Assembly: GCF_028416635.1 (NCBI RefSeq)
Contig: NZ_CP114013.1
Coordinates: 1,116,001-1,180,000, forward strand
Source of the DNA: Baekduia alba
GTDB taxonomy: Bacteria > Actinomycetota > Thermoleophilia > Solirubrobacterales > Solirubrobacteraceae
Direction: 5' to 3'
Length of the DNA: 64,000 bases
Part shown: positions 20,682-40,575 of the stretch, piece by piece
Position numbering within the stretch: position 1 is the first letter of the stretch
Layout: each line of letters starts with the position of its first letter
Program-made: the position numbers and the translations under genes
Notes under the pieces: generated by a model
Seen by the model: the letters and a program-made list of their open reading frames with translations, nothing else
What the model was told of the DNA's origin: nothing
Database searches by the model: none

Positions 20682-20755
<74 letters not shown>

Positions 20756-20758
20756 CTC

Positions 20759-20883: not shown

Positions 20884-22065
20884 ATGGCGCGGCGTTCGTA
20901 CGGAACTGGGCAGCTCTTCGTCCGGGCCGACAGCAACGGTCGGGAGACCTGGTACGGCTCCTGGCGGGTCGGCGGCCGGCGGGTCAAGCGGCGCGTCGGT
21001 TTGAAGCGCCGGCCGTCGACTTCTGATGGTCTGACGCGCACGCAGGCCGAGGCCGAGCTGCGGCGGCTGATGGGGACCGAGGTGGTGCTCGCCGGGCCGG
21101 CGCGCAAGACGATCGAGGAGGCGGGCGCGTTGTATGTGGAGCACCTCGAGCACGTCATGGAGCGCAAGCGCACGACGATCCACGACTACCGCGGATACCT
21201 CCGTCGACATCTTGTGCCGTTCTTCGGCTCGCGGCCGATGGACAAGATTGACCGGGCGTTCGTCGAGAACTACCTGTTGACGAAAAAGCGCGAGGGGCTG
21301 TCGTCCAAGACGGTGTGCAACCACCTCAACTTCCTTCACGGGCTGTGGTCGTTCGCCATCAAGCGCGAGTGGGCGCTGAAGAATCCGGTCGCTTTGGTCG
21401 ACCGTCCGCGGATGCCGCGCTTCAAGGAGCGGCGGATCCAGTTCCTGACGCGCGAGGAGCTCGACGCGGTGGTGCGCGCAGTGCCGGATGACGTGTTGGG
21501 CTCGGTCGAGACGCCGCTGTATCTGACCGCCGCGATGACCGGTCTGCGTCAAGGCGAGTTGATTGCCTTGCGTTGGATCGACGTCGACTGGAGCGCGTCG
21601 CGGATCCGGGTGGCCGACTCGTATGTACGCAGAGCGTTCGATTCGCCCAAGAGCCATCGCGGCCGGTCGGTGCCGATGGCGGACCGGCTGGCAGGGGAGT
21701 TGGAGCGTCACTTCCAGGCCTCGCGCTGGCGGGCGGAGAACGACCTCGTCTTCGCCCATCCGGTCACGGGGCACGTTTTGGACTCCTCCAAGCTGCGCAA
21801 ACGCTTCTACGTGGCTTTGGACCGCGCCGGCGTACACCACATCACCTTCCACGGCCTGCGCCACACGTTCGGCACCCAGATGGCCGCAGCCGGCGCGCCG
21901 ATGCGTGCGATCCAAGAGTGGATGGGCCACGCCGACATCTCGACGACCGAGATCTACTCGCACTACGCGCCGGACCCGACAGGCGGGGCGGCGTTCGCGC
22001 AGAAGGCGTTTGGGGATGCGGCGGGGGCACTGCCGGGCGAGACGGCGCCGTTGCCTGGCTTCTGA
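20884..22065 (+). CDS. int: Tyrosine recombinase (island integrase)
   Basis: A 393-residue phage-type integrase. The N-terminal AP2-like arm-binding segment (about 6-60, GTGQLFVRADSNGRETWYGS) is followed by a SAM-like core-binding domain (75-170) and the catalytic domain. The catalytic residues are Arg222 (TGLRQGEL), Lys256, His323 and Arg326 (HGLRH), His349 (WMGHADIS) and the nucleophile Tyr358 (TTEIYSHY). All are intact, so it should still recombine at the tRNA-fMet sites. The frame is open upstream through the tRNA; the ATG at 20884 precedes the conserved start. It reads away from attL, as usual for such islands. Confidence 0.95.
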   Translation: MARRSYGTGQLFVRADSNGRETWYGSWRVGGRRVKRRVGLKRRPSTSDGLTRTQAEAELRRLMGTEVVLAGPARKTIEEAGALYVEHLEHVMERKRTTIHDYRGYLRRHLVPFFGSRPMDKIDRAFVENYLLTKKREGLSSKTVCNHLNFLHGLWSFAIKREWALKNPVALVDRPRMPRFKERRIQFLTREELDAVVRAVPDDVLGSVETPLYLTAAMTGLRQGELIALRWIDVDWSASRIRVADSYVRRAFDSPKSHRGRSVPMADRLAGELERHFQASRWRAENDLVFAHPVTGHVLDSSKLRKRFYVALDRAGVHHITFHGLRHTFGTQMAAAGAPMRAIQEWMGHADISTTEIYSHYAPDPTGGAAFAQKAFGDAAGALPGETAPLPGF

Positions 22066-22790: not shown

Positions 22791-23456
22791 ATGAGCGTGC
22801 AGGAGGCAGCCGACGTTCTCGGCGTCGGCCCGGCGGCCGTCCGCAAGAGCATCGCCGCCGGCTCGCTGCCGGCGATCAAGCGCGGCCGAGCCTGGTGGGT
22901 GGACGCCGGCGAGATCGATCGCGTCCGGCGCCAGCCGCCCGGCCACGGGCGCCCACTGTCGGCCGAGATGGCCTGGGCCGTGTTGTTGCTCGCCTCAGGG
23001 GACGACGCGTCTGCCGCGGCGGCCGCGGGGCGACAGCGGTACGTCTCGCGCGCACGCGCCTGGCTCGTCGAACATCCATTGGCCGAGCACGCCGCCCGAC
23101 TTCGCGCCCGGGCCCAGATCGAGGATTTCGACGCCCATCCCTCCGAGCTGGGCAGGATCCTCTCTAGGTCTGACGCGCTGGCCACGGGTCTGTCCGCGGG
23201 GTCGCTGGTGGGACTCGTCGGCGGTGACCAGAGCATCGAGCTCTACGCGCCGGCCGACCGTCGACTGGCACTCATCGCCGACCACGGCCTCGAATCGCGC
23301 TCCGGCTCCGTCCACATCCGCTGGGTACCCGAGGCGCTCTGGCCACTGCTGTCGGACGGCGACGGCCACGCTCCACGAGCGGCGGTCCTCGTCGACCTGC
23401 TCGAGAGCGCCGACCCACGCGCACGCCGTGAGGCGGCTCGCGCGTTGAGTGCGTGA
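22791..23456 (+). CDS. HTH antitoxin-like protein paired with a nucleotidyltransferase
   Basis: A protein of about 221 residues with an N-terminal excisionase-type HTH (SVQEAADVLGVGPAAVRKSI, then AIKRGRAWWVD) and a longer C-terminal region without named domain (ELYAPADRRLALIADHGLES and following). A GTG at 22773 is an alternative start, but it abuts the putative operator; ATG 22791 also precedes the conserved HTH. Its TGA overlaps the GTG of the AbiEii-type gene, the usual order for AbiEi/AbiEii-like type IV toxin-antitoxin pairs, in which the DNA-binding antitoxin represses the operon. Sequence similarity to AbiEi proper is not obvious by eye. Confidence 0.75.
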   Translation: MSVQEAADVLGVGPAAVRKSIAAGSLPAIKRGRAWWVDAGEIDRVRRQPPGHGRPLSAEMAWAVLLLASGDDASAAAAAGRQRYVSRARAWLVEHPLAEHAARLRARAQIEDFDAHPSELGRILSRSDALATGLSAGSLVGLVGGDQSIELYAPADRRLALIADHGLESRSGSVHIRWVPEALWPLLSDGDGHAPRAAVLVDLLESADPRARREAARALSA

Positions 23457-24163
23457 CTCGGATCGACATCGACGTCGATGACCGCGAGACCTTGGCGCTG
23501 TGGGAGGCGCTGGGCGGACTCGCCGCGGAGCTGCCGGGCGACTGGATCCTGATCGGTGGTCTGATGGTCCAGCTGCATGCGCTGGAGCGCGGCGCGCGTG
23601 ATGTTCGCGTGACCGCCGACATCGATGTGCTCGGCCAGGCGCGCCCACCGGGAGCGCTCGACGCCATCGACGAGGCGCTCCTAGCCGAGGGCTTCGAGGT
23701 GGCGGGCCCAGACGTCGACGGCTATGCCCATCGCTACCGGCGCGCCGGGCTCGTGGTCGACGTCCTCAGCCCCGATGGCATTCGACCGCCGGCGTCCATC
23801 GGGGGACTCAAGGCCGTTGGCGTGCCGGGCGGGACACAGGCGCTCGCACGCGCCGAGAGCGTCACCGTCTCGGTCGGCGGCCGCGAGTTCTCGCTGCGGC
23901 GCCCCACGTTGTTGGGGGCCATTCTCATCAAGGCCAGGTCCTTGATGACGCACGCAGACCCGGAGGCACAGCGCGAAGATCTCCTGCGCCTGCTGGCGAT
24001 GGTCGAAGATCCGCGAGCGCTGGCCGCCGACCTGAGGACCACCGAGCGCCGATGGCTTCGCGACGCTGAGGCACGCCTCGCCTTCGACTCCTACACCACG
24101 CTCGACGAACCCACGGTTCGTCTGGCGGCTCAGGCCTTCCGCCTGCTCGTGATTCGCCGGTGA
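23453..24163 (+). CDS. AbiEii-like nucleotidyltransferase toxin
   Basis: A 236-residue protein of the nucleotidyltransferase superfamily. The GG signature lies in WILIGGLMVQLHALERG and the metal-binding Asp-x-Asp in VTADIDVLG, which is the AbiEii/MNT-type arrangement; a third acidic residue is present in VVDVLSPDG. Such toxins transfer nucleotides to tRNA or other targets and cause abortive infection when freed from the antitoxin. It is translationally coupled to the upstream HTH gene (GTGA) and ends 46 bp before the convergent relaxase remnant. Confidence 0.78.
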   Translation: MTRIDIDVDDRETLALWEALGGLAAELPGDWILIGGLMVQLHALERGARDVRVTADIDVLGQARPPGALDAIDEALLAEGFEVAGPDVDGYAHRYRRAGLVVDVLSPDGIRPPASIGGLKAVGVPGGTQALARAESVTVSVGGREFSLRRPTLLGAILIKARSLMTHADPEAQREDLLRLLAMVEDPRALAADLRTTERRWLRDAEARLAFDSYTTLDEPTVRLAAQAFRLLVIRR

Positions 24164-24209: not shown

Positions 24210-26499
24210 TCAGAGCTCGGGCCCGAGATCGTCCATCGAGAAAGCTGCCGGCGTCGCGGGCTCGAGCGGAGCGTCGCGGGCGACGAGCACGGCCACCTCG
24301 CGCAACCACTCCTCTCTCGCCGCAAAGCCGGCTGGACGATCGCCCAGCCAGTCGGTGAGCCTGCTGCTGGGGTCAAGCATCGCCGTACGTGTTCGGTGAC
24401 GTTCGGCGAAGTCAGGTGCCTCGGAGTGAGGTTCTCGTGGGCGCACCGGCTCGACGGGGACGGTGTCCGCAGCCTGGGCTGACCACCTCTCGATCGCGGC
24501 ACACTGTGCGTCGATCTCGCGCTCGATCGCCGCCCGTCGCGAGCGGCGCAGCCGGCTCAAGGCGTCGCGCTCAGCCTGCATGCGGGCGATGCGCTGTTCG
24601 GCCCGAGCCACCTCATCGAGGGCGCCCACCGTCCGTGCTGCTCCGCCCCGCACGAGCACGTCCAAGGCCATGTCCTTGGTCCGGCTGGCCGAGAGTGTTG
24701 TCACGACGTCCTCATGAAGGTCGTCGGACTCCGCCTCGAGCCCTGGCAGCGGGCGCTCGACCGAGCCGGGGGAGACGACGTAGAACCGGGCCTGGTCGCG
24801 GTGGCGGCTGAGCGCCGCATAGCCCCACTCGCGATAGAGCTCATCGGAGCCCAGCACGAAGGAGCGGTCGACGGTCGCGCCCTGGGCCGCGTGGGCGGTG
24901 AGGGCGTAGCCGTGCTCGAGCCACCCTTCGTCGAGGTAGCTGCCCTCAAGGCGCAGCTCCGCGTCGCGTGCGGTCCGCACCGTGAGGGTCCGCTGCTCCA
25001 GGTCGATGCCTACAACTTCACCGCGGGTGCCGTTGACGACGCCGGCGCGCCGGTCGTTGCGTCGTGCGATCACCCGGTCGCCGACCAAGAACGAGCGCTC
25101 GCGGGCCACCAGTTCGTCTTCGCCGAGTCGGCCGTCGCGCTGCATCCGCGCGTGCGCCAGGACGTTGAGCTCCGCGACGTCGCGGCGTCGGTGGGCGATC
25201 ATCACGGCGTCCTGGTCGCCGGTTCGTGCGGCCTCCCACCAGTCATCGACGAGCGCGGCCCGGAGTTCGTGGGCGGTGGGGCGGGCGACGATGCGTCCGT
25301 GGTCGCGGTAGGCGTCCGCCCACGCACGGACGTCGCCGTCGCGCAGCTCGGCGAGCGCCTCGCGGTCCCAGTCGGCATGTTGTCGTCGAACCTCGTGCAG
25401 CTCGATCGCGCCGAGGTGCTCGGCCAGGCCGCGGAACGCGCCGCCGGCGTCGATCTCGGGCAGCTGGCGGTCATCTCCGACCAGGACGAGCTTCGCGTCG
25501 CTCTCAGCGGCGTGGCGGGCGAGTCGGTCGATCGTGCGCGAGCCGACCATGCCGGCCTCGTCGACGATCAGCACCGAGCCCTCAGCAAGGTCATGTCCTT
25601 GGTCGATGTCGCGAAGAACCGAGGCGATCGTGGCGCTGTCGATCCCGGCCAGGTTCTCGAGCTCCAGCGCAGCGCGCGCCGAAAGCGCGGTGCCGAAGAC
25701 GCGGACGTCGTGGGCCTCCCAGAGCTCGCGTGCGGCGGCGAGGGCGTGGGTCTTGCCGGTGCCCGCCGCCGCGCGGACGACCTCGCTGGGAGAACTGCTT
25801 GAGAACCCGGTCGTCAATGCCGCGGATCTCGGCGATGCCCTTTGCAGCTGGCTCCCACTCGACGCCCAGCGCCTCGGTGAGCCGGCGCCGCAGCGCCGCC
25901 TCATAGAGGTAGCCGGCCGTCCGCGCATGCGCGTACAACGCGCGGCCGTCGAGCGTGGTGGCGCGCCCCTCGGCGGTCGTGGCGTTGGCGATCACCGCGT
26001 GGGTGTGCAGCTGGGGATCGCCGGCGCGCGAGCTGCGATGCCGAAACGCCGCGACCTTCAAGCCGTCGCCGCGCAGCACGCGATGTCCGCCGCTGCCGCG
26101 ACGCGTCCACGTCGCGTGCCGCTCGATATAGCCCAACGCCTCCTCGACCGCCAGGTCGTGCGCATCGCGGACGACCGGCGCCAAAGCCCGATCACCTACG
26201 CCGAACAGGACCGAAACGGACTTGGGCGCGGAGAACGTCAAGTCATAGGCCAACACTTTCCGCGGGTTTGCGGTCTGCGACGACAGCAAGGCCAGGAACT
26301 GCTCGTCGTCGACGGTCCCGTTCAGGCCCGCCGCGGCGGCGCCACTGCCCAGCCAGCGACCGGGTGATTCGCCGCGGCCGGAGTAGTAGTCCTCCTTGCC
26401 CTGGGCGACGTTGTCGATGTAGTAGCGCGGATCGCCGTTCCCGCCCCCGCCCTTGCCGATGGAGAGCACGTCCCGTAGTCGACGAACGGGGCGGATCAC
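24210..26499 (-). pseudogene. Broken MobF/TraA conjugative relaxase-helicase
   Basis: The N-terminal part (26499 down to about 25800) encodes a TrwC-type relaxase: DVLSIGKGGGGNGDPRYYID, LTFSAPKSVSVLFGVGD and the metal-binding PQLHTHAVIAN. It should continue through roughly 200 residues into a RecD2-like helicase. Instead, after VLKQFSQ the reading frame changes near 25800 and jumps directly to the helicase Walker A RAAAGTGKTHALAAAR. The rest of the helicase follows in a different frame (VLIVDEAGMVGS, LVGDDRQLPEID, GYALTAHAAQGATVD) to 24210. This is an internal deletion plus frameshift at one junction. Neither part would be a working relaxase. Two separately expressed fragments are possible but unlikely. 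Confidence 0.82.
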
Positions 26500-26780: not shown

Positions 26781-29156
26781 CTACGTCGTCGGCTTAACCG
26801 CCCGTCGTCCAGCGCGTTGCGATCGTTGGAGCCGGGCGAGCCGGGGCTTACGCCCGATCTCCTGACGCCAGTCGAAGAAGTCGCCGAGCCCGAGGTGGCG
26901 CTTCTGACTCCACTCCGCCAGCGTGGGTAATAGGGCGCGCCGAAAGCCCGCCTGGGCGAACGGTGCATCGGACAGGTCCGCTGCGACCATCGCTCGGAGG
27001 TCGTCGCTGTAGAGCTCGTCAGGCGTAAGCAAGATCAGCTGCGCACGCATCGGATAGAGGCCATCGACCAACGACGCCGGGCGCGCCAGTCGGCTGAGCT
27101 CGTCTCGTTCTGCGGCGGTGAACCCCTCCTCGTCGAGGGTGGCGAACACGAGGATGGCGCGCGGGAACCGTCGTTGGATCGCCTGTGCTCGTTCGAAGTC
27201 TCGAGGTTGGAGGGGGTGGCGTGTCTTGACCTCGCCGAACACCATCTCGTGCGGCTGGTTGGTCGGTTCCAGGTTCCGGGCTCGGTGGAGGGCGATGAAG
27301 TCGACCTCGCCGATGTCGCCGACGTTCAGGCTCGTCGACCAATCGAGCTCGGAGTCGGTGAGACGATAGAGCGCGTGCAGGGCGAGCATGACCGGGTAGC
27401 GCCCCACAGCGCTCTGCCGTCGCGCTCGGAAGCCGCCGGTGGTCTGGTATGCCCACCGGCCAGGAGGACGTTCCTGAGGGAACGGGAACGTTTGGAGGCA
27501 CTCGGCACAGCGTTGGATATCGCTCAAATCTTCAGGCGAATACCAGTTCCCGAACTGGCAGTGAGGACAACGGATCGTGAGGCCGGCGCGCAGGATGCCG
27601 CGGTCAGTGAGCGCTCGGCGGACTCGGTCGGCATCAAGCCCGTCGCGTCCTTTGTTGTCCGTCTTGAGCGCTTGATCGAGTCGTTGGGGCGGGATTTGCA
27701 TCACCTCGGATCTGGCCACGTCCTGGAACAAGTTGATGAGGCTGCGATTGCGTAAGAAGCGGACGTCGGCGAGCCCACCCACGCGGCGGATCATCTCCAA
27801 CGTCATGCGACCAGGCTCCGATAGAGACGTCTGAAAGCCCTCGTCGGAGAGCAGTTGCTCAATTACCTGCTGACCGGTCGGGAGGCGTGCGAAGAACGAG
27901 TCATCGCGTTGTCGTGCCGGCACGACGATGCCCTCCCAGTTCGTACGGATGTTCGGCGTCAAGAACGCGTCCATGACGGCCCGGACCGATTGCAACTCCC
28001 GGGGGAAGATGCTCGCCCCTTCATCCCACAGGTACGACTTGCGAACAGTGAGGACGTTGATCCACCAGCCGCCGAAGGCGATGGAGTCCGCAAAGGTCGG
28101 TGACGCAAGCTGGAAGGTCGCCCGTTCGGAGGTCGCCGCGATCTCGACCGGAGCGTCTCCTGCGCTCACCGGTCTGAACGCGTCGAATGCGACCGAGTCG
28201 TGATGCCAATGAGCGGCTATCTGCCCGAAGGACCCCTTGACACCGTGTGCCAGGACGTCGTCGACCACCTGCTTGCTTTCGGCCAGGGTCCACCGTCGAC
28301 TCGGGACCAGATCCACGTGGAAGCGCTGAGCGTCGGTCAGATGGGCGGTGAGCGCGGCCAGCCTCGGAGCGAGCGTAGGGACCGCATGCCGCGGAAGCGG
28401 GAGGACCTCGTCGCCAGTCGCGCGCAGGTTCCACAGGTCGAGGAGATCCCAAGGTGAATCTGCGTCGAAGATGTAGATGATGGTTCGAGCCATCGGGGAC
28501 GGCGTCACCTCGATGCCGTAAGACCCGACACTTAGAGGACCGCGAAAGCTGCCAGGGCCGCCAAGGGTGCCGTTCCAGAGCTGCTCGTCATGGATCTCAT
28601 GTCGTTCGGCTTCTAGCAGCGACATGTAGGCCTGCTCGGTCTCCGCGTGGTCGAAGTGGCCGTACCAGACCTTGACGAGGTCATCGAGGCGGGCGGGACC
28701 GGCGGTGGGGAGAACGAGATCGTCTGGCCGGCGAAGGACGAACCGTCGTTCATGCTGGTGTAGATGGGCGTAGACGTCGACGCAATCGACGCCCATGTGA
28801 CGTCGGATATCCCGCGCGTCCGAACTCAGGTCAGTGGCGCTGACCTCGCGGTCGGCGAATGCGTCAGGCACGACGTAGCCCGGCACCATGTTGACGAGGA
28901 CGTCGGGGTCCCATGCCTCGAGGTAGCTACGAGTGAGTTGCGGCCCCGTGAGGTCTGGCCACGGCACGTCTCTCCACCAGGCAGGGCGACGCGCCAGCAC
29001 GGGAACGATCGGGTTGTACTTGCCGCCCCACAGCGAGGTGTTGATCGCGGCCGCACGCGCCAGGGCGCCGTGGGAGGTCATGTCCACGAGGATCGCTGTT
29101 CTCACAGGGCGCACTCGCCGGTCGACTCGAACCGATCGCGATCGTGCGTCCGTCAC
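26781..29156 (-). CDS. Large zinc-ribbon PD-(D/E)XK nuclease-like protein, unknown family
   Basis: A 791-residue protein with a GTG start. I do not recognise residues 1-520 as a family: an N-terminal motif TAILVDMTSHGALARAAAIN with SLWGGKYNPIVPV, a long mixed alpha/beta middle, and the WNGTLGGPGSF region. A four-cysteine zinc ribbon follows (Cys530, Cys533, Cys550, Cys553). The C-terminal domain (about 580-720) has the restriction-endonuclease-like core: VGDIGEVDFIAL supplies Asp619 and VFGEVKTRHPLQ supplies Glu642-x-Lys644. I infer a DNA- or RNA-cleaving effector directed by the N-terminal region. It lies 80 bp downstream of the HTH/pentapeptide gene on the same strand, beside a restriction operon, which suggests anti-phage defence. 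Confidence 0.85.
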   Translation of the reverse strand: MTDARSRSVRVDRRVRPVRTAILVDMTSHGALARAAAINTSLWGGKYNPIVPVLARRPAWWRDVPWPDLTGPQLTRSYLEAWDPDVLVNMVPGYVVPDAFADREVSATDLSSDARDIRRHMGVDCVDVYAHLHQHERRFVLRRPDDLVLPTAGPARLDDLVKVWYGHFDHAETEQAYMSLLEAERHEIHDEQLWNGTLGGPGSFRGPLSVGSYGIEVTPSPMARTIIYIFDADSPWDLLDLWNLRATGDEVLPLPRHAVPTLAPRLAALTAHLTDAQRFHVDLVPSRRWTLAESKQVVDDVLAHGVKGSFGQIAAHWHHDSVAFDAFRPVSAGDAPVEIAATSERATFQLASPTFADSIAFGGWWINVLTVRKSYLWDEGASIFPRELQSVRAVMDAFLTPNIRTNWEGIVVPARQRDDSFFARLPTGQQVIEQLLSDEGFQTSLSEPGRMTLEMIRRVGGLADVRFLRNRSLINLFQDVARSEVMQIPPQRLDQALKTDNKGRDGLDADRVRRALTDRGILRAGLTIRCPHCQFGNWYSPEDLSDIQRCAECLQTFPFPQERPPGRWAYQTTGGFRARRQSAVGRYPVMLALHALYRLTDSELDWSTSLNVGDIGEVDFIALHRARNLEPTNQPHEMVFGEVKTRHPLQPRDFERAQAIQRRFPRAILVFATLDEEGFTAAERDELSRLARPASLVDGLYPMRAQLILLTPDELYSDDLRAMVAADLSDAPFAQAGFRRALLPTLAEWSQKRHLGLGDFFDWRQEIGRKPRLARLQRSQRAGRRAVKPTT

Positions 29157-30797: not shown

Positions 30798-32345
30798 ATG
30801 GCTGATGCTGAAAATCAGCAATTCACTTCGACCGAGCTACGAGACCGCCTTGTAGCGATAGCCGACGAGTTCGGCACGCTCATGTCGCCACGCGCGCGGC
30901 TGGAGCACCTCGCCGCTGCTCTGTTTCTGAAGCGAGCGAGCGACGTCTTCATCGAAGAGCATGCGGCCGCAGTAGCCGAGCTGGGAGGCGCTAGCGGCGC
31001 GGAGGCCATCATCGCCGCTAACCCGAACGCGTACCACCTCCTCCGACTGCCCGCGGGCACAACCTGGAAGGACGTCGGGGAGGTGGACCGCAACCGTTTC
31101 GGAGCCAAGTTCGACGAGGCCCTCCGCGCCGTGGCATCAGCGAACCCGCGTTACCTGAAGAACGTCTTCAACACCACGGATTTCAACAACCGCCAGGTCC
31201 TCCCCGTCGACAACCTCGCGGGCGTTGTACGCAAAGCCCAGCAACTCGGCACCCTGACGACTGCCCGGGTCAGTGCCGAGCTGCTAGGCGAGGCGTTCCT
31301 CCAGGTGGTCGATCACTTCTCCCGGCAGGAGAAGCCCGCCAAAGGCGAGGTCTTCACGCCGAGCGCAGTCGCGCGTCTTGGAGCGCGCCTCCTCGCACCA
31401 GGGGCGGACGCGCAGGTGCACGACCCCGCATGCGGTTCGGCTGGCCTTCTTGTACGCGTGAGAGATGAGGCGCGACGCCTGCACGGCGATGCTTCGAGCG
31501 GTGTCGGCCTGTTCGGCCAGGAGCGCAAGCCCAGCATCTGGCTCGTCGCGCGGATGAACACCCTCTTCCACGGGGCCGCGGCCGCGTCGCGGATCGAGCC
31601 TGGCGACTCCGTGCTGACTCCGGCCTTCTTCGAGGATCAGAACTTCGACCTCGTCATCAGCAACCCGCCGTTCGAGCTGGAGGTCAACGACTGGCACGAC
31701 TCGTTGCGCAAGGGAGACCCGTTCGGGCGAGTCGACCATCTGCCGGGCAAGAGTCACCCGGAAATGGTCTTCGTCCAGCACATGGTCGCCTCGCTCAGCA
31801 ACCACGGCCGCATGGCAGTTCTTCTCCCCAACGGGGCGCTCTTCCGGGCGCGACAACAGCAGGCGGTTCGGCGGGACCTCATCGAAGCCGACATCGTCGA
31901 AGCGGTAATTGGGCTGCCCAAGGGCATGTTCTACGGCTCCGGTATCCCGGTCAGTTGGGTGCTCGTGAACAAGGCGAAGCCCGCCGAGAGGCACGACCGG
32001 GTCCTCTTCGTCGACGCATCGGAGTGTTTCGAGCGGGTTGAGACGACCAACGTGCTCCGTGAGTCAGACGTGGAGCGGGTCCTCGCTGCCTTCGCCGGCG
32101 CCCCCGAGGAACCCGGCTTCTCCGCCTGGGCGACGCGTGACGCCATTCGCGAGCGCCGGTATAACTGGACCGTCCGCCGGTACGTGCGCCCTGCGGAAGC
32201 TGGTGGAGACCTGGTTCCGCTTCCCGAGGCCCTAGCTGAGCTCGACGCGGCTCGGAGCGCGGCCGGGTTGGCCGACGACCTCCTAGAGCCGATACTCAGT
32301 GACCTTCGACGCGCCGTGCCAGACGCGTCTCCCGGCTCAACCTAG
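30798..32345 (+). CDS. hsdM: Type I restriction-modification methylase subunit, first copy (HsdM1)
   Basis: A 515-residue adenine-N6 methyltransferase of the HsdM family. The N-terminal helical domain (about 10-150, ALFLKRASDVF) is followed by GEVFTPSAVARLGARLL, AdoMet motif I DPACGSAGLLVRVRDEA, and catalytic motif IV DLVISNPPFELEVNDW. HPEMVFVQHMVASLSNHGRMAV and PNGALFRARQQQAVRR are also typical. Both catalytic motifs are intact. It starts an operon divergent from the HTH/pentapeptide gene, with 163 bp between starts. A second, clearly paralogous full-length HsdM follows after 54 bp. Motif I has SAG where the second copy has SGG. Confidence 0.93.
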   Translation: MADAENQQFTSTELRDRLVAIADEFGTLMSPRARLEHLAAALFLKRASDVFIEEHAAAVAELGGASGAEAIIAANPNAYHLLRLPAGTTWKDVGEVDRNRFGAKFDEALRAVASANPRYLKNVFNTTDFNNRQVLPVDNLAGVVRKAQQLGTLTTARVSAELLGEAFLQVVDHFSRQEKPAKGEVFTPSAVARLGARLLAPGADAQVHDPACGSAGLLVRVRDEARRLHGDASSGVGLFGQERKPSIWLVARMNTLFHGAAAASRIEPGDSVLTPAFFEDQNFDLVISNPPFELEVNDWHDSLRKGDPFGRVDHLPGKSHPEMVFVQHMVASLSNHGRMAVLLPNGALFRARQQQAVRRDLIEADIVEAVIGLPKGMFYGSGIPVSWVLVNKAKPAERHDRVLFVDASECFERVETTNVLRESDVERVLAAFAGAPEEPGFSAWATRDAIRERRYNWTVRRYVRPAEAGGDLVPLPEALAELDAARSAAGLADDLLEPILSDLRRAVPDASPGST

Positions 32346-32399
32346 ACACAGAAAGAAATTTGGTACGCCCTCCGGTGCGGCCCTTACCATCGCGACCTC

Positions 32400-33935
32400 A
32401 TGCCTATCGACGTTGCCGCGCCTCTGCACCTGCGCACGCTGGAGGACCACCTTTGGGCCTCGGCCGACCTTTTCCGCGGCCTCACCGATGTGGAGGTCCA
32501 GCGCGACTACGTCCTGGCGTTGCTCTTCTTCAAGCGTGCGAGCGACATCCACAAGGAGGAGACCGCCGCTGCGTTTCAGGAGCTTGGAGACGCTCCGGAC
32601 GTCGAAGCCATCATCGCCGCGAACGCGGACGCCTTCTACTCGCTGCGGGTTCCGGAAGACGCCGCTTGGGCGGATGTAGTCGCAACGGACCGCCATGAGC
32701 TTGGCACCGCACTGAACGACGCGCTTGCCGCAATCGCGGCAGCTAACCCGCGCCAGCTCGCGAGCGTCTTCGAGTACACGGACTTCAACAACCGAAAGGC
32801 ACTGCCGCCGGAGCACCTCGCCGCGGTCGTCCGGCACTTCGACGAACTGGGGCCCCTCACGCGCGAGCGCGTCCCCCCAGACATGCTCGGGCAGGCGTAC
32901 GAGTGGCTGATCGCGAAGTTCGCCGCCGAGGCGGGTAAGGCTGGCGGCGAGTTCTACACGCCGGCTCCCGTCGGCTTGCTCGGCGCACGACTTCTGCAGC
33001 CGCCAGCGGCTGCCACGGCATACGACCCCACGTGTGGCTCTGGCGGCCTGCTGCTCGAGCTGCGCGACGAAGCATTCCGACTCCACGGCGACGAGGCCCA
33101 GGGCCTCACGCTCTACGGCCAGGAGTTGAAGCCGACCACGTGGGCCATCGGGCGCATGAACATGCTGCTGCATGGAGCAAACGCCGCCGCGACCATCGAA
33201 CAGGGAGACACCTTGTTCAAGCCGGCGTTTGTCCAAAACGGACGGGTGCGGCAGTTCGACCTGATCATCGCCAATCCCCCGTTCTCATCCAAGAACTGGG
33301 GACACGACAAGCTCAAGTCAGGAGGTGACCCGTTCGGTCGGATGCGGCACCTGCCTCCGAAGCGCCACGGCGAGATGGCCTTCGTCCAACACATGGTTGC
33401 CTCGCTCAAAGACCATGGCCGGATGGCGGTCGTTCTGCCGAATGGGGCACTGTTCCGCGCAGGCAACGAGCAGGCCGTCCGGCGAGACCTCGTCGAAGCC
33501 GACCTCGTCGAGGCTGTCATTCAGCTCCCGAAGGACATGTTCTACGGCGCAGGCATCCCGGCTTGTTACCTCCTACTGAACAAGGCTAAGCGACCCGAGC
33601 GCGTCGGACGTGTGCTGTTCATCGACGGCGCCGAGGGCTTCGCGCGAGCCAACACGAAGAACGTCCTCCAGCCCGAGGACATCGACAGGCTCGTCGCTGC
33701 CTTCAACGACGACAACCCGCAGCCAGGTATCTCGTCCTGGGTCTCTCCCAAGGACATCGCCGCACGACGCTTCAACCTGACCGTGCGCCGATACGTCCAA
33801 GGCACAGAGGACGACGAACAGGCGGTGACCCTCCCGCAGGCCATCGCGGAGCTTCGTGAAGCGCAGGCCGCAGCTCGCGCGACCGACGCTTCCGTAGAGC
33901 AACTGCTCTCCTCCCTTGAGAGCTCCGATGGTTGA
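32400..33935 (+). CDS. hsdM: Type I restriction-modification methylase subunit, second copy (HsdM2)
   Basis: A 511-residue HsdM paralogue of the preceding gene, alignable end to end by eye and very similar in the C-terminal half. It has LLFFKRASDIHKEE, GGEFYTPAPVGLLGARLL, motif I DPTCGSGGLLLELRDEA, motif IV DLIIANPPFSSKNWG and the same PNGALFRAGNEQAVRRDL segment. Both copies look catalytically complete, so they may form a heterodimeric methylase on the single HsdS, methylating one half-site each. Its TGA lies inside the start of hsdS (8-bp overlap). Confidence 0.93.
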   Translation: MPIDVAAPLHLRTLEDHLWASADLFRGLTDVEVQRDYVLALLFFKRASDIHKEETAAAFQELGDAPDVEAIIAANADAFYSLRVPEDAAWADVVATDRHELGTALNDALAAIAAANPRQLASVFEYTDFNNRKALPPEHLAAVVRHFDELGPLTRERVPPDMLGQAYEWLIAKFAAEAGKAGGEFYTPAPVGLLGARLLQPPAAATAYDPTCGSGGLLLELRDEAFRLHGDEAQGLTLYGQELKPTTWAIGRMNMLLHGANAAATIEQGDTLFKPAFVQNGRVRQFDLIIANPPFSSKNWGHDKLKSGGDPFGRMRHLPPKRHGEMAFVQHMVASLKDHGRMAVVLPNGALFRAGNEQAVRRDLVEADLVEAVIQLPKDMFYGAGIPACYLLLNKAKRPERVGRVLFIDGAEGFARANTKNVLQPEDIDRLVAAFNDDNPQPGISSWVSPKDIAARRFNLTVRRYVQGTEDDEQAVTLPQAIAELREAQAAARATDASVEQLLSSLESSDG

Positions 33936-35106
33936 GGCCAACGCGTGGCGAGCGGTCCCGCTAGGGGAGTTCCTCACCGTCGCGCGGCGCATCGTCACAG
34001 TCGAAGACGACGAGAACTACGAGCAGGTCACCGTGCGCATCAAGGGACGCGGCCTCACGAGCCGCGGCGTCGTCCAGGGCACCGCCATCGCAACGAAGAA
34101 GCAGTATGAGGTCCGCGCCGGAGACCTACTCGTCTCGAAGATTGATGCGCGCAACGGTGGCCTCGGCCTCGTCCCGCCGGAGCTCGACAACGCTATCGTG
34201 TCGAGCGACTTCCCGGCCTACGTGATCGACGAGGACGTCTGCCTCCCGGCCTACCTCGACATCTACGTGAAGCGGCCTGTCTTCTGGGAGGAGTGTCTGC
34301 TGGTCAGCGAGGGCTCGACGAACCGCGTTCGGCTGGTCCCGGAGCAGTTCCTGGAGCTGGAGGTGGAACTGCCTTCGCTCGAAGAGCAGCTGGCCATCGT
34401 CGACGCGGTGGACCTCGCGGACCAGGCGGCCGCACGAGCTCGCGAGCAGCGTGCGTCACTGGAGCAGTTCTTCGAGTCGTATCGCCGGGACCTCTTCTCC
34501 GGCCTGGCAGAGGCCCACGAAGCAGTTCCCATCGCGGAGTTCGCGGACCTCGGCTCAGGAGGCACGCCTTCTCGCCGAGAGCCCACATACTTCGGTGGCG
34601 GCGTCCCCTGGGTCAAGACGGGCGAAGTCGCGTTCGGACCCATCAGTGAGACTGAGGAGACCATCAGCGACGAGGGCTTGAAGCGCTCGTCGGCGAAGCT
34701 CTACCCGTCTGGAACCGTGCTCGTGGCCATGTACGGACGGGGTACCGTCGGGCGGTCGGCCTACATCACCGAGCCGATGGCCACCAATCAGGCGTGCGCC
34801 GCAATCAAGCCAGGAAGCCGGCATGTCCCGCTCTTCCTCTTCCACTTCCTGTGGAGCGCGTATGACGAACTTGTCGAGGAGGCGGAGGGAACGACGAACC
34901 TGACGAACATTTCCCTTGGCGTCGTCAGCGACTTCGAGGTACCCCTCCCAGACCTCGACACCCAGGGTGATGTTGCGGTTCGTCTCGAACAGCTCGTTGC
35001 AGCGCGGAAGGCGTACGACAGGCTGTCGGCCGCTCACGTCGGGTTCCGGACGGCGCTCCTGGAGGATTTCGTGACCGGAGTTCGGCAGCCGCCGGAGAGT
35101 AGCTAG
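33928..35106 (+). CDS. hsdS: Type I restriction-modification specificity subunit
   Basis: A 392-residue HsdS with two target-recognition domains. The first TRD (about 10-150) includes EVRAGDLLVSKIDARNGGLG and the central conserved helix region contains LPSLEEQLAIVDAVDLADQA. The second TRD begins at EFADLGSGGTPSRREP, continues with GVPWVKTGEVAF, and ends with another conserved region (VPLPDLDTQGDVAVRLEQL). The order TRD1-helix-TRD2-helix is standard and implies a bipartite DNA target. ATG 33928 overlaps the hsdM2 stop; a TTG four codons upstream is possible. The first TRD resembles those of the simplified, ATP-independent type of specificity subunits. Confidence 0.92.
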   Translation: MVEANAWRAVPLGEFLTVARRIVTVEDDENYEQVTVRIKGRGLTSRGVVQGTAIATKKQYEVRAGDLLVSKIDARNGGLGLVPPELDNAIVSSDFPAYVIDEDVCLPAYLDIYVKRPVFWEECLLVSEGSTNRVRLVPEQFLELEVELPSLEEQLAIVDAVDLADQAAARAREQRASLEQFFESYRRDLFSGLAEAHEAVPIAEFADLGSGGTPSRREPTYFGGGVPWVKTGEVAFGPISETEETISDEGLKRSSAKLYPSGTVLVAMYGRGTVGRSAYITEPMATNQACAAIKPGSRHVPLFLFHFLWSAYDELVEEAEGTTNLTNISLGVVSDFEVPLPDLDTQGDVAVRLEQLVAARKAYDRLSAAHVGFRTALLEDFVTGVRQPPESS

Positions 35107-35117
35107 CGGGCACGAGC

Positions 35118-38100
35118 ATGTCGGCGACGTTTCACACCACAGAGGCAGACATCCAAGCTGAGCAGCTGGACGTGCTGCAGCGACTGGAGTGGGACTTCAT
35201 CAATCGGTGTGACATGAACGCGCTCCGGGGCAAAGCGCGCATGAACGAGGCGATTGTCGAGCCCCTGCTCATCCAGGCCCTCTGCAAGCTCAACGCAGGA
35301 CTCAACGAGGACGCCGCGCGGGAAATCGCCGCCAAGGTACGGCGCATTAGCAGCGACCGAGAGATGCTTGAGGTGTTGCGAAACGGTTACCAGTACAAGC
35401 CGACGCCGGCGAGCCCGACTCTCGACATCACGGTCGTCGACAGCCAGCAGCCAAGCCGAAATGACTACGTGGTGACGGAAGAGTTCGTCATCCGCACTGG
35501 AGGGCAGCGCGAGCCGCGTCTCGATGTCGTGTGCCTCGTGAACGGCATCCCGCTCGGCGTCATCGAGAACAAGGACACAGACGAGCCCATCAGCGGCGCC
35601 GCAGATGACTGGAGGGGCTACTGGCTCGACGCCCCCCAGCTCATCACCCAGACCAGCGTGGTCGGGTGCTGCAACGGCCTGTCGTTCCGCCTGGGCCCCT
35701 CCGGCCTCGAAGACGAACGGTCCTATCTCCAGTGGACCGACGCTTGGCCGCGCGAGGTTGAGGACCCGGACGACGAAATGCTCGTGGCCCTGACAGGCGC
35801 GTATCACCCGCACAACCTCGTCGACCTCGCGACCAACTTCGTCGTCTTCGAGACTCGTGAAGGTGTCACAACGAAGAAGCTCGCGCGGGCGCACCAGTTC
35901 CGTGCGGCGAACAAGCTAGTCGACCGCGTCATCGCCAAGCAGTTCGACCGGGGCATCATCTGGCATGCCACCGGTTCCGGCAAGTCGCTGACCATGGTCT
36001 TCGCCGCCGGCAAGTTGCTCCGCGTCGGGCTCGGCAATCCGTCGGTCGTGCTCGTCATCGACCGTGTCGACCTAGACGAGCAAATCAACGAGACGCTGGT
36101 CGCGTGCGAGTTCGATGGCGTCCAGCAGGCCACCTCTGGTGAGAGGCTGGCGACGCTGCTCGTCGGTGGCGGCGGCGTCATCGTGACCACCGTCCAGAAG
36201 TTCCGTCAGTCGATGAACGCCGCCCTCAAGGACCGAGACGTCATCGTGTTCGTCGACGAAGCGCACCGGTCCCAGTTCGGCAAGTTCGGCATCTGGATGC
36301 AGGACGCGCTACCCACCGCCCGGATGTTCGGCTTCACGGGAACGCCCATCGAGGTCGACTCCCATCGCTCCACCCGCAAGGTCTTCAGTCCTGAACTCGG
36401 AGACGGCAAGCGAGAGGCGTACCTGGACCGTTTCGGCTTTGACCAGGCAATTGCCGACGGCGCCACTGTCCCGGTGGTCTACGAGCCCCGGCTCGCCGAG
36501 TGGCGCATCACCAAGACCGATCTTGACGCCAAGGTCGACGTGCTCGCGGCCGACCTCGACGAAGAAGCCCGAGACGAGTTGCGCGCGCAGGCGAGCAAGG
36601 AGTCCGTCGTCGCGAAAGCGCCGGCACGCGTGGCCGCCATCGCAGCAGACGTCGCCGACCAGCTAGCTACTCGCTTCGCCTCAAATGGCTTCTGCGGCCA
36701 GCTCGTAGGCGTCGACCGTGAGGCCTGTGCGCTTCTCGCCGCGGAGCTCGCCAAGTACCTCCAGCCGCAGGAGTTCGCGGTCATCATGTCGCGTAACAAG
36801 AAGGACAGCGCACGCCGCGTCGGCCAGATTGACCTGCGCTACTGGTACCCGGGCGAGCACTGGGTGCGAGTCCACGGAGCGCCGACGCTCGGCGGCGCCG
36901 ACGAGGGCGACACATCCGAAGCTGCCGACGAGGCAGACGGCTTCATTACGGCGACCGACCGGAAGGCCATCAAGGACTTCATCCGCCGCTTCAAGAGCGA
37001 CAGTGACCCTCTCAAACTGCTCGTCGTCAACGGGATGCTCCTTACAGGCTTCGATGCGCCCAGCGAGCAGGTGATGTTCTTGGACCGCGGGCTTCGCGAA
37101 CACACGCTCATGCAGGCCATCGCCCGGACCAACCGGCGTTACCGGGACAAGGACTACGGCGTCATCCTGGACTACTGGGGCGTCTTCGACGAACTCAAGG
37201 ACGCCCTGTCTGAGTTCGCTTCCGACGACCTCAAAGGGCTCGTTGAGCCGACGGAGGCGCTCATCGAGCGGTTCCCCCGCATCATCGACGAAGCCCTCAC
37301 GGTCGTCGAGCCGGCCGCGAACGGGTCCGCCCGCAAGCGCATGCTGCGTGTAGTGCGGCTGCTGACTGATCACACCGACAAGGCGGAGGACTTCGAGCGG
37401 CTGTTCCGCGAAGCCCAAGGCATTTACGAAACGCTCACCCCGGACAGGCGCCTCGCGCCGCATCTCGGCCGCTACGGCGAGCTGCTCGAAATCTGGGCTG
37501 CCTGGCGACGCGGCACCCGCCGCGACCGCCGCACCGGCGACGACCTGCGCCACAAGACCCGCCAGCTAGTGCAAGCGGCTGTCGGCATGGACCGCATCGG
37601 TGACGACCTGCCCGCCTTCACTATCGACGCCGACTTCCTACAGGCCTTGATCGAGGACAAAGAGCTCACGCCGGAGGAAAAGGCGACCGACATCGAGGCG
37701 GCCATCGTCCACGAAATCAAGGTGCGCGGCCAGGACGACCCCCTGGCTAAGACTCTCGCCGAGCGACTGGCCGAGCTTCGCGCGAAGCGGCTTCGAGCGG
37801 CCCAAATGACCCTCGACGACCTGCGCGGGTGGGAGCAGCTCGTCGCGGATTACAAGCGCGAGCAGGAGCGCGGCGCCGACCTTGGTCTGGATGAGGCCGG
37901 CGTCCTCGTTCATGCGGTGTTGCTGCGGTCCGCGCCAAGCGCCGACGAACAGGACACCGTTGATGTCGCCAAGGCGATGAGCAAGCACTACGACGACGCC
38001 TCTCGCATTCCCGACTGGAAGAACCGGCCCGACGTTGCCCAGCGCCTCCGGCGTGCCGCTGTCAAGGAACTCGTCGTCCGCGACAGCACAAGTCAGCTGC

Positions 38101-38156
38101 CGCAGAACGCCGAGTTGATGGATGAGTTGATGGCCGCTCTTGCGACGCTCCGGTGA
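35118..38156 (+). CDS. hsdR: Type I restriction-modification endonuclease/translocase subunit
   Basis: A 1012-residue HsdR. The N-terminal nuclease domain shows Asp136 (RLDVVCLVNGIP) and Glu150-x-Lys152 (GVIENKDT). The SF2 translocase follows with Walker A WHATGSGKS (Lys289), DEAH box VFVDEAHRSQFG (Asp380), motif III GFTGTPIE, and motifs V/VI LLTGFDAPSEQVMFLDR and QAIARTNRRYRDKDYG. The C-terminal helical region contacts the methylase. All catalytic residues are present. It starts 11 bp after hsdS and its TGA overlaps the GTG of the metalloprotease gene. It should translocate and cut DNA lacking the modification. Confidence 0.95.
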   Translation: MSATFHTTEADIQAEQLDVLQRLEWDFINRCDMNALRGKARMNEAIVEPLLIQALCKLNAGLNEDAAREIAAKVRRISSDREMLEVLRNGYQYKPTPASPTLDITVVDSQQPSRNDYVVTEEFVIRTGGQREPRLDVVCLVNGIPLGVIENKDTDEPISGAADDWRGYWLDAPQLITQTSVVGCCNGLSFRLGPSGLEDERSYLQWTDAWPREVEDPDDEMLVALTGAYHPHNLVDLATNFVVFETREGVTTKKLARAHQFRAANKLVDRVIAKQFDRGIIWHATGSGKSLTMVFAAGKLLRVGLGNPSVVLVIDRVDLDEQINETLVACEFDGVQQATSGERLATLLVGGGGVIVTTVQKFRQSMNAALKDRDVIVFVDEAHRSQFGKFGIWMQDALPTARMFGFTGTPIEVDSHRSTRKVFSPELGDGKREAYLDRFGFDQAIADGATVPVVYEPRLAEWRITKTDLDAKVDVLAADLDEEARDELRAQASKESVVAKAPARVAAIAADVADQLATRFASNGFCGQLVGVDREACALLAAELAKYLQPQEFAVIMSRNKKDSARRVGQIDLRYWYPGEHWVRVHGAPTLGGADEGDTSEAADEADGFITATDRKAIKDFIRRFKSDSDPLKLLVVNGMLLTGFDAPSEQVMFLDRGLREHTLMQAIARTNRRYRDKDYGVILDYWGVFDELKDALSEFASDDLKGLVEPTEALIERFPRIIDEALTVVEPAANGSARKRMLRVVRLLTDHTDKAEDFERLFREAQGIYETLTPDRRLAPHLGRYGELLEIWAAWRRGTRRDRRTGDDLRHKTRQLVQAAVGMDRIGDDLPAFTIDADFLQALIEDKELTPEEKATDIEAAIVHEIKVRGQDDPLAKTLAERLAELRAKRLRAAQMTLDDLRGWEQLVADYKREQERGADLGLDEAGVLVHAVLLRSAPSADEQDTVDVAKAMSKHYDDASRIPDWKNRPDVAQRLRRAAVKELVVRDSTSQLPQNAELMDELMAALATLR

Positions 38157-38896
38157 GCGCCATGGCCGCCCCACCCGCAGCGGAGACGCTCACCGTCGAC
38201 CTTGGGGAGCGCGTCGTCGAGGTCGAGGTGCGTCGTTCTGACCGTGCGCGTACCACTCGCATTCAACTCGGGCGCGACGTCCCGCTGCGCATCATCGTGC
38301 CAGCGGGCGCGTCCGATGAGTACGCGGCGCAGGCCCTGCGGAACAAAGCAGCCTGGGTCCTGTCGAAACTGAGCTCGGTCGAGGAGGAGCGGCACCGCCT
38401 CGCCGAGCTCGGTCTGGCCACGGACACGCAGGTGTGGTTGCACGGTGCCCGGGTGACCGTTGAGTCCACGTCCCGTATCGCTCACGCACGCCTTCAGGAC
38501 GGGCGTCTGCTCGTCCCCGCGGAAGACGCCTCGCGAGCCGTACAGCGGTGGTATCGGCGCACCGCCCGTACATGGCTTCGGCAATTGGTCGCGGCGGAAG
38601 CGGAGAGGCTCGGCGTCGAAGTGTCGGGCGTGGGCGTCCGTGACCAGCGGACGCGTTGGGGGTCGTGTTCGCGCCACGGACACATTTCCTTGAACTGGCG
38701 TCTCGTGGTCATGCCGGAGCACGTGGCGCGGTATGTCGTCGTCCACGAGCTCGTGCACCTCCGGGTTGCGAATCACTCGAAGTCGTTCTGGCGCGCGCTG
38801 TCGGCGGCGCTGCCGGACTGGCAAGAGGCCTCCGACTGGCTCGGTCGCCACGGCAACGAGCTGCGCAATTACCAGCCGGGAGCGGAACTCTCGTGA
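38153..38896 (+). CDS. YgjP/DUF45-type M48-like metallopeptidase associated with the restriction operon
   Basis: A 247-residue protein of the YgjP (DUF45, SprT-like) family. The zinc site is HELVHL (His198, Glu199, His202) with the downstream NHSKSFW segment supplying the third ligand, preceded by RWGSCSRHGHISLNWRLV, the family signature. Its N-terminal half holds LRIIVPAGASDEYAAQALRN. Such genes are often found within type I restriction loci, but their role is not established; one idea is controlled proteolysis of the restriction complex. It is coupled by GTGA overlaps to both hsdR upstream and the HARE-HTH gene downstream. Confidence 0.88.
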   Translation: MSAMAAPPAAETLTVDLGERVVEVEVRRSDRARTTRIQLGRDVPLRIIVPAGASDEYAAQALRNKAAWVLSKLSSVEEERHRLAELGLATDTQVWLHGARVTVESTSRIAHARLQDGRLLVPAEDASRAVQRWYRRTARTWLRQLVAAEAERLGVEVSGVGVRDQRTRWGSCSRHGHISLNWRLVVMPEHVARYVVVHELVHLRVANHSKSFWRALSAALPDWQEASDWLGRHGNELRNYQPGAELS

Positions 38897-38969
38897 ACTT
38901 CTGGAAAGCCATCGTGACGGTGCTTGCCGATGAGGGAGGACCGCTTCACTCCAAGGTCATTACAGAGCG
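38893..38969 (+). pseudogene. Frameshifted 5' part of the HARE-HTH/Mrr gene
   Basis: A GTG at 38893, overlapping the metalloprotease stop (GTGA), opens the first HARE-HTH domain: NFWKAIVTVLADEGGPLHSK followed by VITER. At about 38968 the frame is lost. The rest of the same domain (MLDQQLWESEGKTPDATVAA) continues in the next frame, one base short of alignment. In its own frame this fragment continues without domain sense to 39105. No slippery heptamer is visible, so a deletion mutation or a sequence error is more likely than programmed frameshifting. Confidence 0.7.
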
Positions 38970-39974
38970 ATGCTCGACCAACAACTTTGGGAGAGCGAAG
39001 GCAAGACTCCGGACGCGACGGTTGCGGCTCGCCTCTACACGGACATCAAGAAAAAGGGTGCCGGCTCTCGGTTCGTTCAGGTCGCGAAGGGAACATTCGC
39101 GCTGAACCCAGACGTCGAGGACCAGCAGGCTCAGCTGGCGGGCGAGGCGGAGGCAGTGCCCTCGAACGAAGCGACTCCTTTGAGCGCAGACATGCCTGTC
39201 GGCGCGCCGTTGAAAAAGCGGCTGTCGTTCACCGACGCGGCGGAGGACGTTCTACAGCGTCACGGCAACGGGCACCCGATGCACTACCGCGACATCACCA
39301 AGGTGGTGCTCGACGAGGACCTCGTGAAGACCAGTGGCAAGACGCCGGAGGCCACCCTCTACGCGCAAATCATCACGGAGAACGCGCGCGCAGAGATGCG
39401 CAGCAAGCCAGTGCGGTTCGTCCGCCACGGCAAGGGCATGGTCGGCCTGGCGGCCTGGCTGGAACCTGGCGTACAGCAGGAGATTGCCAAACACAACGCA
39501 GATGCCGAAGAGCAGATGCTCGAACAGCTCCGCGAGCTTGACCCCGCGGACTTCGAGCAGCTCGCCGGCGAACTGCTGAGGGAGCTCGGCATCCGCGAGG
39601 TCGAAGTCACCGCCTACCACGGCGACAAGGGCATTGACGCGACCGGCGTGTACGAGCTCGCCGAGGGTCTCGATGTCCGCATCGCAGTTCAGGCCAAGCG
39701 CCAGCAGCAGAACGTGCAGCGACCGACCGTGCAGGCACTCAACGGGAGCCTCAAGCCGCACCAGCAGGGCCTCATCATCACGACCAGCGACTTCGGGAAG
39801 GGCGCCCGCGAGGAAGCCGCCCGCGACGACAAGCCGCTCATCTGGCTCATCAACGGCAAGCAGCTCGTCAAGCTGCTCATCGCCAACGACATCGGCGCTC
39901 GGCGGGTCGCCGTCGAACTCGTCGAGCCCACAGGGTTCGAGCTCGGCGACGCAGACCGCAACGCCGCAACCTGA
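38970..39974 (+). CDS. HARE-HTH and Mrr-type restriction endonuclease
   Basis: A 334-residue frame from ATG 38970. It contains the second half of a HARE-HTH domain (GKTPDATVAARLYTDIKKKG), a complete second HARE-HTH (about 85-165, DVLQRHGNGHPMHYRDITK to MVGLAAWL) and a C-terminal Mrr catalytic domain (about 185-310): DPADFEQLAGELLRELGI, the HGDKGIDATG aspartate segment and the IAVQAKR Gln-x-Lys motif. Mrr enzymes cut modified DNA, and HARE-HTH domains are predicted to sense modified bases. The intact ancestor would have started at 38893. Whether this start is used is doubtful, as no ribosome-binding site precedes it. Confidence 0.8.
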   Translation: MLDQQLWESEGKTPDATVAARLYTDIKKKGAGSRFVQVAKGTFALNPDVEDQQAQLAGEAEAVPSNEATPLSADMPVGAPLKKRLSFTDAAEDVLQRHGNGHPMHYRDITKVVLDEDLVKTSGKTPEATLYAQIITENARAEMRSKPVRFVRHGKGMVGLAAWLEPGVQQEIAKHNADAEEQMLEQLRELDPADFEQLAGELLRELGIREVEVTAYHGDKGIDATGVYELAEGLDVRIAVQAKRQQQNVQRPTVQALNGSLKPHQQGLIITTSDFGKGAREEAARDDKPLIWLINGKQLVKLLIANDIGARRVAVELVEPTGFELGDADRNAAT

Positions 39975-40536: not shown

Positions 40537-40575
40537 CTCATAACCCGAAGGTCGCAGGTTCGTATCCTGCCCCCG
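40537..40575 (+). other. Right attachment site (attR), 3' half of tRNA-fMet
   Basis: A direct repeat of 20714-20752 with one mismatch in the T-loop. No 5' tRNA half precedes it, so it is not a gene. It marks the right boundary of the island. Confidence 0.85.

What the first reader, a model, noticed from the sequence alone, without database searches (positions are those of the whole stretch)
30798..39974. Six-gene overlapping operon joins type I restriction, a metalloprotease and an Mrr-type enzyme
HsdM1, HsdM2, HsdS, HsdR, YgjP-like peptidase and HARE-HTH/Mrr follow with gaps of 54 bp or less and several stop-start overlaps. A modification-blocked enzyme and a modification-dependent enzyme in one transcript would attack both unmodified and foreign-modified DNA; the peptidase could police the complex.
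Basis: partly seen in the sequence, partly recalled or inferred. Interest (0 to 1): 0.6.

Follow-up and report, generated by a model that had tools for sequence, protein, structure and literature searches.

The report
Type I restriction operon with extras
A mobile DNA island in a high-GC actinobacterium carries an ordinary four-gene DNA-restriction operon to which a second, altered methylase gene and a damaged modification-sensing nuclease gene have been added; it is mostly a known kind of system, with the twin methylase as the one part worth testing.

Summary
The six-gene block is real. Pfam and PDB matches identify HsdM1, HsdM2, HsdS, HsdR, YgjP-type zincin and HARE-HTH/Mrr nuclease, all on the + strand. 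Its parts have different histories. HsdM-HsdS-HsdR-YgjP is a widespread conserved operon, found here in five bacterial phyla plus a haloarchaeal plasmid, so the peptidase is a regular partner of this HsdR type. HARE/Mrr is a local addition. It sits beside hsd genes in none of about 90 related hsd loci and in neither of two good HARE-nuclease relatives. As sequenced, its first HARE domain is broken by a frame change at about 38967. A type I system next to an Mrr gene is already known from the E. coli immigration control region. Type I enzymes with two different M subunits are known (PacII, m6A/m4C), but this pair fails the PacII signature (both NPPF, no NPPY) and arose separately. HsdM1 has changed at positions matching PacII R29, F171 and S280, which suggests an independently evolved asymmetric M1M2S methylase. 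The operon lies at the end of a ~20 kb tRNA-Met island. New variant of a known kind, modest interest.

The parts
30798..32345 (+). hsdM1: second HsdM, 515 aa; NPPF kept, pocket GEVFTP (F185V), R26G, S293E, motif I DPACGSAG
   Evidence: Pfam HsdM_N + N6_Mtase; closest solved chain PacII M1, 7vru_A; tree places it with HsdM2 on a long branch; motifs
32400..33935 (+). hsdM2: canonical HsdM, 511 aa; 74% identical to the single HsdM of a related operon (L013)
33928..35106 (+). hsdS: specificity subunit, two TRD regions
   Evidence: Pfam Methylase_S; PADLOC Specificity_I over 16-371
35118..38156 (+). hsdR: translocase-nuclease, 1012 aa, motifs intact
   Evidence: 65% identical to L013 HsdR
38153..38896 (+). 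ygjP-type zinc metallopeptidase, HELVH at residues 198-202
   Evidence: Pfam YgjP-like 7.7e-52; conserved partner of hsdR
38893..38969 (+). probable original GTG start and N-terminal part of the first HARE domain, now out of frame with the rest (this frame ends at stop 39103)
38970..39974 (+). HARE-HTH (truncated) + HARE-HTH + Mrr_cat nuclease, 334 aa
   Evidence: Pfam HARE-HTH 2.9e-27, Mrr_cat 5.9e-28; PADLOC PDC-S02 and type IV models
20682..20756 (+). tRNA-Met, left attachment site of the island
   Evidence: ARAGORN
20884..22065 (+). tyrosine integrase of the island, ATG 20884, 393 aa
   Evidence: Pfam Phage_integrase 8.5e-30; start
40537..40575 (+). right attachment repeat: copy of the tRNA-Met 3' part (26 nt exact; 97% over 39 nt)

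Best explanation
The block is a type I restriction-modification operon carried on a tRNA-Met-integrated island. SHOWN: its core, HsdM2-HsdS-HsdR-YgjP, is a conserved operon. HsdM1 is a lineage-specific, strongly diverged duplicate of HsdM2. HARE/Mrr is a separate addition whose first HARE domain is frameshifted in this sequence. INFERRED: HsdS carries HsdM1 and HsdM2 as a heterotrimer (M1M2S) that methylates a bipartite site. HsdM2 is an ordinary m6A subunit. HsdM1 has an altered pocket (F to V at the base-pocket residue, S to E at the pocket entrance, loss of the N-terminal arginine), making one half-site different in rate or target. HsdR joins to translocate and cut DNA unmethylated at both half-sites. 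YgjP acts on the HsdR complex, probably as a built-in brake like ClpXP restriction alleviation. HARE/Mrr, if it works at all from the internal start at 38970, is an independent back-up nuclease for foreign modified DNA whose specificity must spare the operon's own marks.
For: Gene identities. Conservation of M-S-R-YgjP: L013, L014, L015, L016, L017, L018, L019, L026, L140, L143, plasmids of Klebsiella, Hoyosella, Haloplanus (archaeon), Pseudomonas and, convergent, Priestia. HsdM1 as a duplicate: tree 100/99 for {M1, M2, L013 M}, branch 1.08 against 0.26 and 0.17. Of 234 residues invariant in four single-M relatives, 81 are changed in M1 and 11 in M2. M1 is still an intact gene: full-length frame, third-position GC 0.79 against 0.80 in M2, NPPF kept. 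Two-M enzymes are real biochemistry: PacII M1M2S, PMC9613975, and both window M proteins match its chains best of all solved structures. HARE/Mrr is not a constant partner. Frame change. Island.
Against: No methylome, expression or binding data. M1 could be a decaying duplicate or sit in an M1-only or M2-only complex. V at the pocket position also occurs in another HsdM family (with NPPW), so it does not prove loss of activity. No test of any YgjP activity on HsdR. The HARE frame change could be an assembly error, since reads were not available.
Confidence: 0.6

Rival explanations
1. PacII-type non-canonical type I system: HsdM1 and HsdM2 make m6A on one strand and m4C on the other.
For: Two adjacent, different hsdM genes before hsdS; both best match PacII chains. 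As in PacII, one M carries the N-terminal arginine (M2 R26, equivalent of PacII M2 R29) and the other does not (M1 G26).
Against: The defining motif pair is absent: both have NPPF, neither NPPY, and M2 has GGEF rather than AAEF. In the tree the window pair lies apart from the NPPF/NPPY pairs of L137-L139, which form their own clade. Those loci also lack YgjP.
Confidence: 0.08
2. HsdM1 is a degenerating or dispensable duplicate: the working enzyme is ordinary M2(2)S plus HsdR, with HsdM1 and the broken HARE gene as passengers of a decaying island.
For: Long branch of HsdM1, pocket change F185V at a residue whose alanine mutant lost activity in PacII, frameshifted HARE gene, relaxase split in two frames on the same island.
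Against: HsdM1 keeps a full frame, the NPPF motif, most SAM motif residues and coding GC pattern; random decay would not be expected to keep these.
Confidence: 0.27
3. One reading: an integrated double-edged system in which type I restriction and an Mrr-type enzyme are co-evolved partners.
For: Tight spacing; in the ancestral frame the HARE gene starts 4 nt inside the ygjP stop. HARE-REases are described as auxiliary effectors in Dnd and BREX loci (PMC10853773, PMC12839542).
Against: No relative has the pairing; the gene is frameshifted in its first HARE domain; PADLOC's best match is PDC-S02, a candidate family that by its name is single-gene; modification dependence is not shown.
Confidence: 0.05

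Closest known systems
Type I R-M operon hsdM-hsdS-hsdR-ygjP (SprT/YgjP-linked), e.g. Klebsiella plasmid p1856-1, Hoyosella pAS9A-2, Haloplanus pJCM16430-01
   Same: Same gene order, with the peptidase start at or overlapping the hsdR end
   Different: One hsdM gene only; no HARE/Mrr
PacII non-canonical m6A/m4C type I MTase (M1M2S; PDB 7VRU; PMC9613975)
   Same: Two different HsdM subunits with one HsdS; best solved-structure match of both window M proteins
   Different: Window pair is NPPF/NPPF, independently duplicated, and sits in a YgjP-bearing operon
E. coli immigration control region (hsdRMS with mrr and mcrBC)
   Same: Type I system beside an Mrr-family nuclease (PMC3874165; CP054241 locus L124)
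   Different: In E. coli K-12 Mrr has a winged-helix N-terminus (PMC12707154), not HARE domains; here the nuclease gene follows directly in the same tandem block
HARE-HTH/REase proteins in Dnd and BREX neighbourhoods; PADLOC PDC-S02
   Same: HARE-HTH joined to an Mrr-type PD-(D/E)XK nuclease (for PDC-S02 the match covers the nuclease part only)
   Different: Two HARE domains, the first broken; hsd neighbourhood

Membership tests
Type I restriction-modification system | HsdM with gamma N6-MTase fold, SAM motif I and NPP(F/Y/W) | tested here: met
   (both M)
Type I restriction-modification system | HsdS with two target recognition regions | tested here: met
Type I restriction-modification system | HsdR with nuclease ExK and SF2 motor motifs | tested here: met
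Type I restriction-modification system | ATP-dependent cleavage blocked by methylation of a bipartite site | not testable with these tools
   needs biochemistry or a methylome
PacII-type m6A/m4C type I system | Two different hsdM genes with one hsdS | tested here: met
PacII-type m6A/m4C type I system | M1 AGEF/NPPF and M2 AAEF/NPPY motif pair (PMC9613975) | tested here: not met
   window: M1 KGEV/NPPF, M2 GGEF/NPPF
PacII-type m6A/m4C type I system | Common ancestry with NPPF/NPPY pairs | tested here: not met
   separate clades; PDB chains themselves were not in the tree
YgjP-linked type I operon | YgjP gene directly downstream of hsdR, conserved in relatives | tested here: met
Type IV (modification-dependent) Mrr-family enzyme | Mrr_cat PD-(D/E)XK domain with GxD and QxK | tested here: met
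Type IV (modification-dependent) Mrr-family enzyme | Intact reader domain and cleavage only of modified DNA | tested here: inconclusive
   second HARE intact, first broken by a frame change; activity not testable here

The most novel reading that the evidence does not exclude
HsdM1 and HsdM2 form an obligate asymmetric M1M2S methylase that evolved independently of PacII within the YgjP-linked type I clade: HsdM1 lost the arginine equivalent to PacII M2 R29, gained a glutamate at the pocket entrance (S293E) that could pair with the arginine kept in HsdM2 (R26), and gained an altered base pocket, so the two half-sites are marked differently (rate, strand or base).
Probability: 0.3. Interest if true: 0.55.

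Novelty: new variant of a known kind. Interest (0 to 1): 0.3.

Why it matters
If HsdM1 and HsdM2 form one enzyme, asymmetric type I methylases arose at least twice, and the residues that changed point to where asymmetry is set. The near-constant hsdR-ygjP pairing in this clade makes an open question directly testable: whether many type I systems carry their own protease to control restriction, as ClpXP does for EcoKI. The HARE/Mrr part lowers interest, being a known kind of neighbour and damaged here.

Tried and rejected
(1) Genome-contig scan with an HsdR alignment found no confirmed relatives; replaced by an HsdM alignment. (2) HARE/Mrr in viral contigs: none; phages: two weak hits; plasmids: matches almost only over the nuclease domain. 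(3) PacII membership considered and rejected on motifs and tree. (4) Programmed frameshifting at ~38967 considered: no slippery run is visible and frame A runs past the join to 39103, so a lesion or assembly error is simpler; not proven. (6) Promoter scan uninformative. (7) Literature searches for YgjP/COG1451 with restriction gave nothing relevant in the held library, so no claim is made that the hsdR-ygjP link is unreported; it is visible in routine annotation ('SprT family zinc-dependent metalloprotease').

Full report
OBSERVATION. The six-gene block is present. Spacing is 54 nt, -8, 11, -4, then either -4 (GTG 38893) or 73 nt (ATG 38970). Catalytic motifs are intact in HsdM1, HsdM2, HsdR, YgjP and the Mrr domain. 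No sigma-70-like promoter or plausible intergenic terminator was found. Co-transcription is therefore inferred from spacing, not shown.

CONTEXT. The operon is the last cargo of an island. tRNA-Met 20682-20756 is followed by a tyrosine integrase (20884-22065), a split MobF relaxase (TrwC domain in 25591-26499, helicase in 24210-25928, different frames), and, on the - strand, an unclassified 791-aa protein and a pentapeptide protein. A copy of the tRNA 3' part lies at 40537-40575 (26 nt exact, 97% over 39 nt). GC falls from 0.70-0.78 in most of the window to about 0.64-0.67 between 26 and 42 kb. The same tRNA bears a different ~5 kb element with a similar integrase in one congener, and a second tRNA copy about 7.2 kb away in another.

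THE CONSERVED CORE. A relative in the same order (L013) has hsdM-hsdS-hsdR-ygjP, with one hsdM and no HARE/Mrr. Among loci found through HsdM, all with an HsdR scoring above 200 bits against the window HsdR, L013-L019, L026, L140 and L143 have ygjP next to hsdR on the same strand, and L145 has it convergent. L137-L139 do not have it, and L144 could not be judged. The roughly 70 loci with more distant HsdR have none. Plasmids of Klebsiella, Hoyosella, Pseudomonas and the archaeon Haloplanus show the same order, but those were found through YgjP and so are not an unbiased sample. The peptidase is thus a regular partner of one HsdR lineage. Its substrate is unknown. A brake on HsdR is my inference from ClpXP-dependent restriction alleviation (PMC12707154).

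THE SECOND HsdM. HsdM1 and HsdM2 are 51-53% identical. A maximum-likelihood tree groups HsdM1, HsdM2 and L013 HsdM with 100/99 support, with HsdM1 on a branch of 1.08 against 0.26 and 0.17. The order inside this group is unresolved, and HsdM1's composition departs from the alignment's. Of 234 positions invariant in four single-M relatives, HsdM1 has changed 81 and HsdM2 11. The best solved relatives are the two M chains of PacII, 7VRU. PacII is a type I enzyme with two M subunits giving m6A and m4C, marked by AGEF/NPPF and AAEF/NPPY (PMC9613975). The window pair has KGEV/NPPF and GGEF/NPPF, so it is not a member. True NPPF/NPPY-type pairs were found in three other actinobacterial genomes (L137-L139), each paralogue forming its own clade. 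Two-M type I operons therefore arose at least twice. In PacII, R29 of M2 sits at the mouth of the M1 pocket near E170, F279 and S280 of M1, and F171 forms the M1 pocket. By alignment HsdM2 keeps the arginine (R26) while HsdM1 has G26; HsdM1 has V185 for F171 and E293 for S280, and keeps E184 and F292. This looks like one subunit specialising against the other. That reading is inference, and decay of HsdM1 remains possible (V at this position also occurs in an NPPW family).

THE HARE/MRR GENE. Pfam finds HARE-HTH and Mrr_cat. The first 24-26 residues of the first HARE domain lie in another frame starting at GTG 38893: they align to an independent HARE domain (G242) with 0 of 2000 shuffles as good, and joining the frames raises the score from 76 to 119. 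The frame from 38893 continues to a stop at 39103. The 38970 frame has a stop at 38931 upstream, so the nuclease can only start inside the damaged domain. Close relatives are rare: among 60 relatives the best match was E 5.7e-17, over the nuclease part only, and one of 345 other phylum genomes (G242) passed 1e-20. Twelve HARE neighbourhoods were fetched, several short and most not HARE-nucleases, and none showed hsd genes by phmmer. Type I plus Mrr adjacency itself is classical: the E. coli immigration control region (PMC3874165; L124). HARE-REases are reported as auxiliary nucleases in Dnd and BREX loci (PMC10853773, PMC12839542).

VERDICT. An ordinary YgjP-linked type I system with two local additions. 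Its joint-system idea is supported for the peptidase and unsupported for the nuclease. The twin HsdM is the part worth an experiment.

Noticed in passing
20682-20756, 20884-22065, 40537-40575; L178, L179: tRNA-Met is an integration hotspot in this genus: this ~20 kb island, a ~5 kb element with a similar integrase in G005, and a second tRNA 3' copy ~7.2 kb away in G006.
   Followed up: partly
24210-26499 (-): MobF relaxase broken into two frames (TrwC domain and helicase), so the island is probably no longer self-mobilising.
   Followed up: partly
26781-29156 (-): 791-aa island protein with a Cys-rich, zinc-ribbon-like segment and an EVKTRH segment (nuclease-like); no match in Pfam, NCBIfam or PADLOC.
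   Followed up: partly
L137 729-7859, L138 9914-17050, L139 9189-16423: Tandem hsdM-hsdM-hsdS-hsdR operons with NPPF and NPPY motifs, PacII-like, in three other actinobacterial genomes.
   Followed up: partly
23453-24163 (+): 236-aa island protein that reads by eye like a nucleotidyltransferase-type protein, beside an HTH_17 protein; no Pfam or PADLOC match.
   Followed up: no
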